A DNA stretch of 64,000 nucleotides from Actinomycetota bacterium. Lineage in GTDB: Bacteria > Actinomycetota > Thermoleophilia > BMS3ABIN01. The notes beneath the pieces were generated by a model. The model made no database searches. It was not told where the DNA came from and saw nothing but the letters and a program-made list of their open reading frames with translations. Positions within the stretch are counted from its first letter, which is position 1. Every line of letters starts with the position of its first letter. Shown one piece after another: positions 6,496 through 12,842 of this stretch. The position numbers and the translations under genes are program-made. The stretch is from assembly GCA_023382335.1 (NCBI GenBank), contig JAMCPM010000001.1, positions 1-64,000 on the forward strand, written 5' to 3'.

Positions 6496-8178
6496 ATGCC
6501 ATCGGTCCAGTTCAAGCAGCAGAGAGGCGCTGCCGATGGTTTTCAACAGAGAGAACCTTTTATCGCGCTGGCTGGAATCGTCGCGATTTCTCTCTTCCAG
6601 CAAGGGGCAGGATCTTTGGCAATAGACGCGACCAATAACTCCGGGAGCAGTTTTTCCGACCGCCAGACTGGATATAGCGGCGTACTTGGTCACGTTCTGC
6701 GCTCGGCCTATTTCTGGATCGGCATCATCCTGGCGGTACTTGCGGGCGCACAGGTTGCCGCGACCGGTATCCACGAGGTCCAGGGATTTCTCTTTCTCGG
6801 CTATTTCATGCCAATTGCCATTGCCGCTCGGTATCTCCCCCGGAGCCGGGCCCTGGCGGTGACCGCAGTCTCGACCGCCATTTATGCTCTCGCCTTTATT
6901 CCTGACATGCTGGCGATCGGCGCGAAGCACGGCGAGCTCTCGGTGGAACTCATGGACCGCATCGCCATGTTCATGGCTGCCGGCATTGTTCTTAGCAGTT
7001 TCCGGTTCGGCCTCACCCGCGAAAAAGAGCGGGCGCTGCGCGCCGAAAGAGACAGGGCTGACCGCCTCAAGCTGATGCTCGAGATTTCAACCACGGTTTC
7101 TTCTTCACTAAAGATCGATCAGGTTCTGCAGTTGCTGGCCGAGCGTATTGTTGAAGCCGTAGACGCAACGTTCTGCAGTGTCTTTCTGCTCGAGGGCGAC
7201 GGCGATTATCTCCGTATCGTCGCGGCTCATCCTTCCAGAGATCTGAAATTGGGGCCCCCGATCGGCATGACCATACCGCTTTCCCAGTTGCCCGATTTCA
7301 AGAAGGCGATCGAAACCAAGACCGCAGTCATCGCTGGTGGCAGGCGCCTGGAATCAATCGAAACCAAGTCCTCGCATTTCCAGTTCCTGCATGATGTCAA
7401 ATCGTTGATGGTTTATCCACTGGTCGTAGGGGAGAAAGCCGTGGGAGCCGTGGCCATCGGGGAACATCGAGATTGGAAGCGCAGCCCGATGACGATGGAA
7501 AAAACAGCGCTCTGTCAGACAATCGTCAATCAGGGCGCAGTAGCTGTCGGTCATGCCCTAAATCACCAGGCGCTCGAGGAAACGTTCGTCGGCACCATCC
7601 GCTCGCTTGCCGAGGCCATCGACGCCAAGGATCCCTCAACGCGCGGCCATTCCGACTGGGTTTCCAAGTATGCGCTGATGATCGGCAGACAGATGGGGCT
7701 GACTAATGGAGCGCTTGACGAACTAAAATACGCCGGATATCTGCACGACGTGGGCAAGATCGGCATTCCCGATGAAATTCTGGTCAAGAGCAGTCAGCTT
7801 TCCCTGGATGAATGGAAGCTGATGAAGAAGCATCCGATCGTCAGCGCCCGCATCCTCGAACCGGTGCCGATTTCGGGCACGATCAAGGCCGCCATCCGCC
7901 ATCACCACGAGCGTTTCGACGGCAAGGGTTATCCTTACGGCTTGGCCGGCGAGTCGATTCCGTTGGCGGCAAGGGTCCTGTCGGTGGCGGATTCCTACGA
8001 AGCCATGACTTCTGACCGGCCCTACAGGCAGGCGCTCTCAGACGAACAGGCGGTCACCGAACTCGTGCGTTGCTGCGGAACCCAGTTCGATCCGGTAGTT
8101 GTCGACTCATTTCTGAAATCACTGGGAAGGACCCCCGTCTCGTCGGCTTCCAGTGAAGGCGAATCGCTTACCGGTTAG
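6496..8178 (+). CDS. Membrane GAF/HD-GYP domain protein (probable cyclic-di-GMP phosphodiesterase)
   Basis: The protein has three to four hydrophobic helices (about 68-175), a short coiled segment (LTREKERALRAERDRADRL), a GAF domain (about 195-350) and an HD-GYP domain (about 360-545). The HD-GYP site is complete: HDVGKIGIP (417-425), HHERFDGKGYP near 470-480 and SVADSYEAMTSDRPYR. This suggests a membrane-linked sensor that hydrolyses c-di-GMP. ATG 6496 lacks a ribosome site. TTG at 6616, behind CAGGA and just before the membrane region, is a credible alternative start that would give 520 residues. Confidence 0.82.
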   Translation: MPSVQFKQQRGAADGFQQREPFIALAGIVAISLFQQGAGSLAIDATNNSGSSFSDRQTGYSGVLGHVLRSAYFWIGIILAVLAGAQVAATGIHEVQGFLFLGYFMPIAIAARYLPRSRALAVTAVSTAIYALAFIPDMLAIGAKHGELSVELMDRIAMFMAAGIVLSSFRFGLTREKERALRAERDRADRLKLMLEISTTVSSSLKIDQVLQLLAERIVEAVDATFCSVFLLEGDGDYLRIVAAHPSRDLKLGPPIGMTIPLSQLPDFKKAIETKTAVIAGGRRLESIETKSSHFQFLHDVKSLMVYPLVVGEKAVGAVAIGEHRDWKRSPMTMEKTALCQTIVNQGAVAVGHALNHQALEETFVGTIRSLAEAIDAKDPSTRGHSDWVSKYALMIGRQMGLTNGALDELKYAGYLHDVGKIGIPDEILVKSSQLSLDEWKLMKKHPIVSARILEPVPISGTIKAAIRHHHERFDGKGYPYGLAGESIPLAARVLSVADSYEAMTSDRPYRQALSDEQAVTELVRCCGTQFDPVVVDSFLKSLGRTPVSSASSEGESLTG

Positions 8179-8250: not shown

Positions 8251-10786
8251 TTATTGCCTGCCAAGTCCGACGCTGGTGCGGCTGTTCTTCAACAGCTTTA
8301 GAGAATGCAGATAAAGAGGGCTTTTGCCGCTGCGGATAATATCAGCTTCGCGCAGGCTCGCCAGCAGCTCCTGAGGCGAGGAAAACTTCCTCAGCGAAAG
8401 CATGGCAGTGCCGATTCCCTGGACAACATGGCAATCGCTGCCGGCCCCGCCCGGGATATCATATTTGCGCGCAAGCCTGCGCGCTTTCTCGTTGAAGGTC
8501 GTGAAGGTAATCCTGGGATTAAAGACTTCGAGGATGTCTATGTCGGCAGCGTTCCTGGCCAGAAGCTCGTAAGTAGGCGTTAAGTGCAGAGGGTCGAACG
8601 GGTGGGGCACATAGACCAGGCCCCCCTGTGCCTTGATCCGCGAGATTGTCTCTTCCGCGGTAAGGCCCTTGGGAATTTCCTCTTTTAGGTAAAGGCCGAT
8701 GATCTCGCCCTCGCTGGTCTTGATCTCAGCGCCGACGATGACGTGCATCCCTGCCGGAGCCAGCTGCGCCACCGCCAGGCCGCCGGCGATGGTGTTGTGA
8801 TCGGTGACAGCTATGGCCGCAAGCCCGGATTCTTCACAGGCGGCCAGCAGCTCTTCGGGCGTGGTCACGCAGTCACCCGAAAAACTCGTATGCATGTGCA
8901 GGTCGGCGAGGATTGTGCCGCTTGAGCGGATCGATTCGATCGCCCCGTGAGCCGGACGAGTCCGCCGCCTGCGGCTATAAGCCTGGTGATAGGCTTTCTC
9001 CACCCGGGGCGTGATCTTTTCCCACGAATACCTGGCTGCCTTGCGGGCCGCGGCAGCTTTAAGCGATCGCCGCTCCTTTTCCCCATGGAGGAGGTCGACA
9101 AGGCTGGCGGCAAGATTGTAAGTATAGGGATGATCGAGAAGCAGCCCTTCGTTGCCTTCTCCCACCAACTCCTTGAGCCCGCCCTGGCCGGGCACAAGAA
9201 CGGCGACGCCGCAGGCCATCGCCTCGAGGATCGAACTGGCAAGACTGGAGGCGGCGTAAGGAGCGCACAGGATGTCCGACCGCTGATACTCCTCGGCCAG
9301 CCTGCCGCCGCCGATGACACCAGCCCAACAAACCCTTTCGCGAAGCCGGCGCGGGATCAGCAGCCGGCCGCGCCAGGCCAGCGCCTCGCCGCCGACTACG
9401 CCCAGCTCGAACCGGGGCACGTCGTCGGGAAGCAGGCGGATAGTCCTGGCCAGCAGCCCCAGGCCCTTGCGGGGGTCGCTCCAGGCTGCGAAGATGATTC
9501 GCGGCAGCCTCTCCCGTTTCTTTTCGGTTTCCTCCGGGGGCTGGAAACGGTGACTGTCGACACCTCCGCCGATGACGGCATAATCGCCGGGAAAATAACT
9601 GGAGACCATGCGGCGGGTGTTGTGCGATGTGCATATGCGTCCGTCGAGGCGCGAAAAGAAGCGCTCCACGACAGGACGCATGAGCAGGTAGCTCAGAAAA
9701 CGTATAGGGATGATCGAGAAGCAGCCCTTCGTTGCCTTCTCCCACCAACTCCTTGAGCCCGCCCTGGCCGGGCACAAGAACGGCGACGCCGCAGGCCATC
9801 GCCTCGAGGATCGAACTGGCAAGACTGGAGGCGGCGTAAGGAGCGCACAGGATGTCCGACCGCTGATACTCCTCGGCCAGCCTGCCGCCGCCGATGACAC
9901 CAGCCCAACAAACCCTTTCGCGAAGCCGGCGCGGGATCAGCAGCCGGCCGCGCCAGGCCAGCGCCTCGCCGCCGACTACGCCCAGCTCGAACCGGGGCAC
10001 GTCGTCGGGAAGCAGGCGGATAGTCCTGGCCAGCAGCCCCAGGCCCTTGCGGGGGTCGCTCCAGGCTGCGAAGATGATTCGCGGCAGCCTCTCCCGTTTC
10101 TTTTCGGTTTCCTCCGGGGGCTGGAAACGGTGACTGTCGACACCTCCGCCGATGACGGCATAATCGCCGGGAAAATAACTGGAGACCATGCGGCGGGTGT
10201 TGTGCGATGTGCATATGCGTCCGTCGAGGCGCGAAAAGAAGCGCTCCACGACAGGACGCATGAGCAGGTAGCTCAGAAAACGCTCGCCAGCCGTGTGGAA
10301 GGTCGCGACGGTAGGACTTTGGGCCAGTCTCAGGGCGGTGAAGGAAAGGCTGGGAGGATACGGCTCGTGGACATGCAGGAGATCGAACCTCTCGTGCTCC
10401 AGAAGGTCGTTGAGTTGTTCGGTGACCTCTAGCGGCAGGGAAAGGTTGGCCAGTGAATCACTGTAGGGGACGCGGAAGGTCCCGGTGATCTTGATCAGTC
10501 TGTACGGTGGGCGCTCACCGGCGACCACGGGGTCGCCGGTATCGGACGCGCGGCTGCCCGGGGTCAGCTTGCGTGTGCTCTTGGCGGTACGCCGGGCCGC
10601 CTTCGCCTGTTTGCGGGCGGCGCGCAACTCGGTCCGTTCCTCCGAGGGCGCGATCACCGAGACCTCGTGCCCGTTTTGTGACAGGGACGTGGCCAGACCG
10701 GCAATATAGCGGTTGACGCCCCAGACCGAAGTCCAGGCGTGGGGGGAAACCAGTGCTATCTTGAGTTTTCCCGGCGCGGCGCGCAT
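8251..10786 (-). pseudogene. GT4 glycosyltransferase-PHP phosphoesterase fusion, split by a 580-bp tandem duplication
   Basis: Removing one copy of the 580-bp repeat leaves a continuous 651-residue frame. The N-terminal part is a GT4 glycosyltransferase resembling PimA (IALVSPHAW, GVNRYIAGLA, LLHVHEPYPPS, then SSLASSILEAMACGVAVLVP). The C-terminal part is a complete PHP domain (LADLHMHTSFSGDC, AVTDHNTIAGG, GAEIKTSEGE, VYVPHPFDP, GAGSDCH). As written here, the reading frame shifts after about residue 361 and ends near 9059. The C-terminal frame survives as 8251-9900. The gene lies downstream of ino1 and a PI-phosphate synthase-like gene, so a role in inositol-lipid mannosylation is likely. Either a real mutation or an assembly error explains the break. 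The ATG at 10786 has no clear ribosome site. Confidence 0.8.
9122..10282. repeat. Perfect 580-bp direct tandem duplication
   Basis: Bases 9122-9701 are repeated at 9702-10281 with no difference I can find, and the shared G at 9702/10282 is the only overlap at the junction. The unit lies inside the glycosyltransferase domain. Its length is 3n+1, so it breaks the reading frame, and losing one copy restores it exactly. Confidence 0.95.
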
Positions 10787-10919: not shown

Positions 10920-12137
10920 TTAGCGCTTCTTCGTCGACTTTTTTGCGGTCGCCTTCCTGGTGGTCGACTTCCTGGCAGCCGGTTTTCTAGCCGCGGCTTT
11001 CTTTGCCGGGGATTTCCCTGCCGCCGGTTTTGCCGACGAGCTGTCGCCGGTCAAGGCTGCGGACGATGTGCCGGCGATGAATTCCTCGGTCATGTTGCGG
11101 CAGATATCATCCGGATGCTGCGCCGGCGGCGACTTCATGAAATAGGATGCCGGCCCTTCAAGCGTTCCGGAGATGCCGCGGTCGAGCGCCAGCTTGGCGC
11201 AGCGGACGGCGTCGATGACGATGCCGGCGGAGTTGGGAGAGTCGACGACCTCGAGCTTGAGCTCGATGTTGAGGGGCACATCGCCGAAGGAGCGGCCCTC
11301 GAGACGGATGTAGGCCCACTTGCGGTCGTCGAGCCAGGCGACGTGGTCGCTGGGTCCGATATGGACGTTGTCCGCGCCGATGTCATAGTCGAGCAGAGAA
11401 GTAACGGCGTTCGTCTTGGAGATCTTTTTACTTTCCAGGCGCTCGCGTTCCAGCATGTTGAGGAAGTCGGAGTTGCCGCCCACGTTTAGCTGACTGGTTC
11501 GCTCCATCCTCACGCCGCGGTCCTGCATCAGGCTGGCCAGGATCCTGTGCACGATCGTGGCGCCTACCTGCGACTTGATATCATCACCTATTATTGGTAA
11601 TCCCTTTTCCGCGAAGCGGGCCTGCCAGTAAGGTTCGCGGGCGATGAAGACAGGGATACAGTTAACCATGGCGCATCCGGCCGTGAGGATCTGTTCCGCA
11701 TACCACTTGGTGGCCTCCTCGCTGCCTACCGGCAGGTAACTTACCACCACATCCGTCCTGGTCGACTTGAGGATGCCGACAATGTCGTCTGTCTTGCCCG
11801 GCGCCTTGGTAACGATTTGTGACAGGTACTTGCCGATGCCGTCGTGGGTCATTCCCCGGGAGACCTTGACTCCCGTTTTGGGGACGTCGCAGAACTTGAC
11901 GGTGTTGTTGGGGTGGGCGAAGATGGCCTCGGAAAGGTCCTTGCCTACCTTGCCCTGAACTACGTCGATGGCGGCAACGAACTCGATGTCACTGATGTGA
12001 TATCCGCCCAGGTTGACGTGCATCAGCCCAGGGACCCTGTCGGTCGCTTTCGCGTTCTTGTAATACTCCACACCCTGCACAAACGATGAGGCGCAGTTGC
12101 CCACGCCGATGATGGCAACTCTCACAGTGCTGCTCAA
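10920..12137 (-). CDS. ino1: Inositol-3-phosphate synthase with a histone H1-like C-terminal tail
   Basis: A 405-residue myo-inositol-1-phosphate synthase, which isomerises glucose 6-phosphate using NAD. The N-terminal NAD loop is [12 protein letters not shown] (7-18). Core motifs include [28 protein letters not shown] and the DSPNSAG segment. The enzyme core ends near residue 355. After it comes an added basic tail of about 45 residues rich in Lys, Ala, Pro and Ser (repeats such as [14 protein letters not shown]), resembling histone H1 C-termini and absent from most bacterial Ino1. The product should feed the CDP-alcohol phosphatidyltransferase encoded just upstream. Confidence 0.93.
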
Positions 12138-12209: not shown

Positions 12210-12842
12210 TCAGGGTTTCCGGTCGCCCTCGCGGGCGGAAGCTTCAGCGAACTGTCGCCTGACGTGCAGGATGCGCTGCAGCACGGTGTAAGCGGTCAGC
12301 ACCGCTAGAATATACATCACCACGGCCAGCACGCCAAACTTCTGCAGCAGCAGACCCGCTCCCAGGAGCACCAGGCGTTCGGGCCGGGTCATGAGGCCGA
12401 CCTTGCAATCGAGCCCCAGAGCCTCTGCCCTGGCGCGCGTGTAACTCACAAGAAACGAGCCGATCATGGTGACGAAGGCTGCGCCCACGAGCCAGAGGTT
12501 GCCGTCGCGGGCGTAAACGAGGGCGATCGAGGTCAGCACCGCTCCTTCCCCGACGCGGTCGAATGTCGAATCGAGGAACGCCCCCATCGGCGACACCCGC
12601 TCCGAGAGGCGCGCGACGGCGCCGTCGAGCATGTCGCAAACGCTTCCGGCGGTGAAGACGATGGCGGCGGTGACGAAGTAGCCGTACCAGACCAGAACCG
12701 CGGCGCCCAGCGTCATGGCAAGGCCCAGGACCGTAAGAAGATTGGGTGAGATGCGGGTCCGCCCGATGGCGGCGGTGAGTGGCTTGAATAGCCGTCTGGC
12801 CTCGGTGCTGTAGAAGTACCTCAGCTTTTCAATATAAAGCAT
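12210..12842 (-). CDS. CDP-alcohol phosphatidyltransferase, probable phosphatidylinositol-phosphate synthase
   Basis: A 210-residue integral membrane enzyme with the CDP-alcohol phosphatidyltransferase signature complete: D70, D73-G74, A77-R78, G87, D91 and D95 (DMLDGAVAR then GAFLDSTFD). It has about six membrane helices. The adjacency to ino1 makes phosphatidylinositol-phosphate synthase, joining CDP-diacylglycerol and inositol 1-phosphate, the most likely activity. A PgsA-type phosphatidylglycerophosphate synthase is the alternative. It is first in a probable three-gene operon (this gene, ino1, GT4-PHP). Confidence 0.85.
   Translation of the reverse strand: MLYIEKLRYFYSTEARRLFKPLTAAIGRTRISPNLLTVLGLAMTLGAAVLVWYGYFVTAAIVFTAGSVCDMLDGAVARLSERVSPMGAFLDSTFDRVGEGAVLTSIALVYARDGNLWLVGAAFVTMIGSFLVSYTRARAEALGLDCKVGLMTRPERLVLLGAGLLLQKFGVLAVVMYILAVLTAYTVLQRILHVRRQFAEASAREGDRKP

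What the first reader, a model, noticed from the sequence alone, without database searches (positions are those of the whole stretch)
9122..10282. Perfect 580-bp tandem duplication that frameshifts a glycosyltransferase-PHP gene
Bases 9122-9701 and 9702-10281 are identical by direct reading. The unit is 3n+1 long, so it breaks the frame, and deleting one copy restores one 651-codon gene exactly. Either it is a recombination-reversible off-switch (loss by slippage or recA recombination gives back the gene), a recent lesion, or an assembly error. Perfect identity means it is very recent or artificial.
Basis: seen in the sequence. Interest (0 to 1): 0.75.

Follow-up and report, generated by a model that had tools for sequence, protein, structure and literature searches.

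The report
Exact gene-breaking duplication, short-read assembly
A 580-base stretch inside a conserved sugar-transferase gene of an uncultured actinobacterium is written twice in a row and breaks the gene; it looks like an ordinary accidental duplication whose copy number was inferred by a short-read assembler, not like a built-in switch.

Summary
9122-9701 and 9702-10281 are identical (580/580), shift the frame by +1 and break a 651-codon minus-strand gene (8251-10786). All 18 held relatives of the family have the locus, none with the duplication, and the PIP synthase / Ino1 / GT4-PHP order is conserved, so one copy is ancestral. The gene joins a PimA-like glycosyltransferase to a PHP phosphoesterase and was under strong purifying selection (dN/dS about 0.08 against its sister).

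New here: 21 of the genome's 46 contig ends stop on exact shared 127-mers. It is therefore a k=127 short-read graph assembly that resolved nothing longer in the third of the genome I sampled, except this loop. Two copies is thus an assembler inference. The graph loop needs 126 junction-specific 128-mers, so the junction was probably in several reads, but mixed one-copy and two-copy cells give the same graph. Identity between copies may also be imposed by graph collapse.

The breakpoints share 1 bp, as random sites do. There is no recombinase in the ten larger neighbouring ORFs scanned, and no relative carries the repeat. Best reading: a spontaneous, revertible tandem duplication lesion, frequency unknown. 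A phase-variation switch is not supported. Assembly or library error remains possible.

The parts
9122..9701 (-). copy 1 of the 580-bp unit by + strand order (second copy read by the gene)
   Evidence: 580/580 identical to 9702-10281
9702..10281 (-). copy 2 of the 580-bp unit by + strand order (first copy read by the gene)
9701..9702 (.). duplication junction; 1 bp of shared sequence at the breakpoints
   Evidence: junction 40-mer unique in genome
8251..10786 (-). GT4-PHP gene broken by the duplication (ancestrally 651 codons)
   Evidence: single open frame of about 638-707 codons in the relatives whose full-length gene was extracted
9059..10786 (-). ORF A, 575 aa: native residues 1-361 (GT4 N-domain and most of the C-domain), then out-of-frame tail
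   Evidence: Glycos_transf_1 matched only to 142/172
8251..9900 (-). ORF B, 549 aa: out-of-frame lead, then native residues from 170 (GT C-domain + PHP + PHP_C)
10920..12137 (-). inositol-3-phosphate synthase (Ino1), upstream neighbour, conserved synteny
   Evidence: TIGR03450 550 bits (below the 638 cut-off); synteny
12210..12842 (-). phosphatidylinositol-phosphate synthase-like CDP-alcohol phosphotransferase
   Evidence: NF045883 153 bits (cut-off 170), NF040950 160 bits (cut-off 180); synteny
6496..8178 (+). GAF/HD-GYP-type regulator, convergent neighbour, conserved synteny

Best explanation
A spontaneous illegitimate tandem duplication of 580 bp arose inside a conserved, formerly functional PimA-like glycosyltransferase-PHP phosphoesterase gene in at least part of the sequenced population. 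It shifts the frame after residue 361, so it removes the end of the GT domain and uncouples the PHP domain: a loss-of-function lesion. The copies form a perfect direct repeat, so RecA-dependent or independent recombination would be expected to delete one and restore the gene. The lesion is revertible, but it is not a programmed switch, because the one-copy allele has nothing at the breakpoints that would remake it. Shown: the sequence, the frame break, the ancestral one-copy state, purifying selection, lack of breakpoint homology, and the k=127 graph nature of the assembly. Inferred: that the junction is in real DNA molecules, that the product is inactive, and that it reverts. Unknown: the fraction of cells with two copies.
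For: Exact repeat and restored frame. Single copy in relatives, with GTN and PHP pieces directly adjacent in conserved gene order. dS 0.70 and dN 0.054 against the sister, with no other disabling change in the gene. A loop in a k=127 graph needs 126 junction-only 128-mers, i.e. at least 6 reads of 150 bp or 2 of 250 bp, which argues against one stray chimeric read. No N in the window or in the sampled contig stretches, so no scaffold gap. In a published benchmark SPAdes rebuilt several two-copy tandem repeats of 334-467 bp units at the expected copy number, even without read pairs, while leaving others unresolved (PMC6052550). RecA present.
Against: No reads were available, so copy number and allele fraction are unmeasured. 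Breakpoint homology of 1 bp is what random joining gives, whereas duplications verified in Salmonella had 11 bp or more (PMC3411829). The gene is conserved in every relative searched and its neighbourhood suggests envelope lipid synthesis, so a fixed null would be surprising.
Confidence: 0.6

Rival explanations
1. Assembly or library artefact: the cells carry one copy, and the assembler walked a loop closed by chimeric reads or by a very minor allele, or a later contig-merging step doubled the stretch.
For: Contig ends meet on exact 127-mers, so nothing longer than 127 bp was directly spanned. In about 0.85 Mb sampled, the other exact direct repeats of at least 127 bp lie at contig ends; this loop is the one exception. 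1 bp homology as in random ligation. All relatives are single-copy and the gene is conserved.
Against: The loop needs 126 junction-specific 128-mers, i.e. several independent reads of ordinary length. No N or gap. SPAdes drops chimeric edges in simplification (PMC6736328) and rebuilt several two-copy tandem units correctly in a benchmark (PMC6052550).
Confidence: 0.28
2. Phase variation: duplication and loss alternate as a selected on/off switch of the glycosyltransferase, as described for pneumococcal capsule genes.
For: Glycosyltransferase target, frame-breaking unit, perfect direct repeat, RecA present. Precedent: capsule genes cap3A, cap8E and tts (Waite et al. 2001, 2003, as cited in PMC4022640).
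Against: No relative has the duplication. Breakpoints are random-like, and flanking inverted similarity is weak (3-10% of random pairs do as well). No recombinase domain in the ORFs scanned. The locus looks like core inositol-lipid metabolism, not a variable surface locus.
Confidence: 0.07
3. Functional split: ORF A and ORF B are both made and work as separate GT and PHP proteins.
For: ORF B keeps the PHP and PHP_C domains and metal-ligand motifs, and several internal start codons exist.
Against: ORF A lacks the end of the GT domain (142/172). Only one internal start, at codon 348, has an RBS-like stretch. No relative is split this way.
Confidence: 0.05

Closest known systems
Tandem sequence duplications within pneumococcal capsule genes (cap3A, cap8E/wchA, tts) causing phase variation
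   Same: Internal tandem duplication in a sugar-polymer gene with loss of function, revertible in principle by loss of one copy
   Different: There reversion and high frequency were reported in cultures; here there is one assembled instance, no reads, and no reversion data. Known here only through citations in PMC4022640
Spontaneous tandem duplications of bacterial chromosomes (Salmonella split-read study, PMC3411829)
   Same: Non-programmed direct-order duplication, expected to be unstable
   Different: Verified events there had 11 bp or more of junction homology; this one has 1 bp
PimA, phosphatidylinositol mannosyltransferase (PDB 4n9w, 2gej)
   Same: Best solved relative of the GT4 part (E about 5e-30), and the gene sits beside Ino1 and a PIP synthase-like enzyme
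   Different: Fused to a C-terminal PHP/PHP_C domain, and the first Glu of the usual EX7E motif is Ser, Ala, Gly or another residue throughout the family

Membership tests
Phase-variable locus controlled by internal tandem duplication | frame-disrupting perfect tandem repeat inside the ORF | tested here: met
Phase-variable locus controlled by internal tandem duplication | both alleles (one-copy and two-copy) in one population, reversible at high frequency | not testable with these tools
   needs reads or culture; the mixture and the pure two-copy state give the same 128-mer set
Phase-variable locus controlled by internal tandem duplication | recurrence at the locus in relatives | tested here: not met
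   all relatives single-copy
Spontaneous illegitimate tandem duplication | derived relative to a one-copy ancestor | tested here: met
Spontaneous illegitimate tandem duplication | short direct homology at breakpoints | tested here: inconclusive
   1 bp, equal to the random expectation
Short-read assembly loop artefact | assembly cannot directly span a repeat of this size | tested here: met
   exact 127-bp contig-end sharing
Short-read assembly loop artefact | read depth over the unit equal to flanks | not testable with these tools
   no reads held
PimA (phosphatidylinositol mannosyltransferase) | sequence similarity to PimA over the GT-B fold | tested here: met
   E 5.4e-30 to 4n9w over residues 104-357
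PimA (phosphatidylinositol mannosyltransferase) | intact EX7E motif | tested here: not met
   first Glu replaced in all 16 aligned proteins; mannosyl transfer untested

The most novel reading that the evidence does not exclude
Cells of this uncultured actinobacterium exist as a standing mixture of one-copy and two-copy alleles, so a core inositol-glycolipid glycosyltransferase is stochastically switched off by an unstable internal duplication.
Probability: 0.06. Interest if true: 0.5.

Novelty: new member of a known kind. Interest (0 to 1): 0.2.

Why it matters
It is mainly a caution. Contig-end k-mers show that this genome is a k=127 graph assembly, so a perfect tandem repeat longer than 127 bp records a loop and an estimated copy number, not two observed copies, and 'perfect identity' carries little dating power. 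If reads confirmed both alleles, it would extend capsule-type duplication switching to a core lipid gene of an uncultured lineage.

Tried and rejected
(1) Search for programmed breakpoints: no direct homology beyond 1 bp. An 11/12 inverted match just outside the unit is matched by 3-10% of random pairs, depending on search width, so I do not count it. (2) Mycothiol idea (GT4 = MshA, PHP = missing phosphatase, Ino1 next door): no MshC above its cut-off in the genome; the hits ring in all control genomes, as expected for cysteinyl-tRNA synthetase relatives. Set aside. I took stretches instead, about a third of the genome, and did not rebuild the whole. (4) Another copy of the unit or junction elsewhere in the genome: none. 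(5) No Rfam hit in the window other than two tRNAs. (6) Genome collection scan for other copies of the species: only other species found, all without the duplication; records of the window's own genome may be left out of that scan.

Full report
Observation. The two 580-base blocks are identical at every position; the match extends 0 bases left and 1 base right, and nothing else in the window repeats a 40-mer. The unit is 3n+1 long. On the minus strand it turns one 651-codon gene into two overlapping ORFs of 575 and 549 codons. The junction is unique in the 2.45-Mb, 23-contig genome.

The gene. ORF A carries Glyco_transf_4 and most of Glycos_transf_1; ORF B carries Glycos_transf_1, PHP and PHP_C. 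The GT part is nearest PimA among solved structures, and the PHP part is nearest putative metal-dependent phosphoesterases. Upstream lie Ino1 and a PIP synthase-like enzyme (both just under the curated cut-offs). Wherever contigs are long enough, the order PIP synthase, Ino1, GT4-PHP, convergent HD-GYP holds in relatives. An inositol-phospholipid glycosyltransferase is therefore the likeliest role (inference). In the 15 relatives aligned, the PHP metal-ligand motifs are essentially invariant (one HxH motif has a Met/Ile/Thr middle residue), while the first Glu of the GT4 EX7E motif is replaced throughout.

Ancestral state. All 18 other genomes of the family have the gene. None has the duplication: the native residues on either side of the downstream breakpoint are directly adjacent, and the protein alignment is gapless around both breakpoints. 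Named relatives are metagenome-assembled Thermoleophilia/Actinomycetes, so the host is an uncultured environmental actinobacterium. Against the 90%-identical sister, dS is 0.70 and dN 0.054 (unit alone 0.62 and 0.060), so the gene was under purifying selection, and no other disabling change is present.

How the sequence was made. Across the contig termini, 21 of 46 ends fall into groups sharing an exact 127-base terminus, with divergence at base 128-131. That is the mark of a de Bruijn assembly with k=127, the largest k of SPAdes (established knowledge). IS-like repeats all broke contigs, so no long reads bridged them. In about 0.85 Mb of sampled sequence, the other exact direct repeats of at least 127 bp lie at contig ends; the 580-bp loop alone was walked through. 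In such a graph the duplication adds exactly 126 junction 128-mers and removes none. Two things follow. The junction must have been covered by several reads (six or more of 150 bp, or two of 250 bp), so a single chimeric read is an unlikely cause. And a population in which only some cells carry the duplication gives the same graph as one in which all do. Copy number two was therefore inferred, not read. A benchmark found SPAdes right on several two-copy tandem units of 334-467 bp beyond the insert size, and silent on others (PMC6052550). Bulge removal could also erase differences between copies (my knowledge of the algorithm, not tested here).

Mechanism. The breakpoints share 1 bp; 83% of random pairs 580 bp apart share 1 bp or less. 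Inverted similarity near the breakpoints is weak. No recombinase domain was found among the ten larger ORFs scanned around the gene. This fits an accidental join and not a specific site. Loss of one copy would restore the frame. RecA is present, and direct repeats of 438 bp delete at about 6.5e-4 in Deinococcus with or without RecA (PMC4627823). A duplicate with no benefit should therefore be transient. Its presence in a consensus means that it was caught recently, that it is tolerated, or that the assembler overstated it.

Known kind. Internal tandem duplications that silence capsule genes and revert are described for pneumococcus (Waite et al. 2001 and 2003, via PMC4022640). This locus works like that in anatomy, but it fails the recurrence test and the two-allele test could not be run. 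I therefore file it as a spontaneous tandem duplication, not as a phase-variable locus.

Verdict. Observation confirmed; lesion most likely (0.6), artefact next (0.28), switch unlikely (0.07). Interest low.

Noticed in passing
G000 contig ends C2s, C6s, C6e, C7s, C8s, C11s, C14e, C19s, C19e, C20s, C21s: Eleven contig ends stop 127 bp into the same element (TGAATCGCCCCGGGTTTCC..., then an ORF starting MNTRKRYPKELKERAVRMVLDHAEEY, by eye like an IS3-type OrfA); four more ends stop in what looks like its other terminus. A multi-copy IS fragments this assembly.
   Followed up: partly
L062 12491-20000 (G000:C2 end): Open-ended ORF of more than 2,500 codons of repeated Ig-like/adhesin-type domains; the contig stops where a 127-mer recurs 552 bp downstream.
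   Followed up: partly
G000 C5/C23, C12/C17, C5/C13, C4/C17 ends: Four contig-end pairs share 126 bp (one short of k) with a short non-matching tip, and so were left unjoined.
   Followed up: no
L018 (G010:C92:3767-5656): In one relative the GT4-PHP match carries an in-frame TAG and the PHP part has a shorter open frame (381 codons), so a second, different lesion or an assembly error may exist there.
   Followed up: no
window 8251-10786: The whole GT4-PHP family lacks the first Glu of EX7E (aligned residues S/A/G/M/P) while keeping the second; unusual for a retaining GT4.
   Followed up: partly
window 10920-11040: Ino1 ends in a Lys/Ala/Arg-rich, histone H1-like tail ([35 protein letters not shown]).
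   Followed up: no
window 9557-9584 and 10137-10164 (+ strand): A sigma-70-like promoter match inside the unit, antisense to the gene and doubled by the duplication; consensus match only.
   Followed up: no
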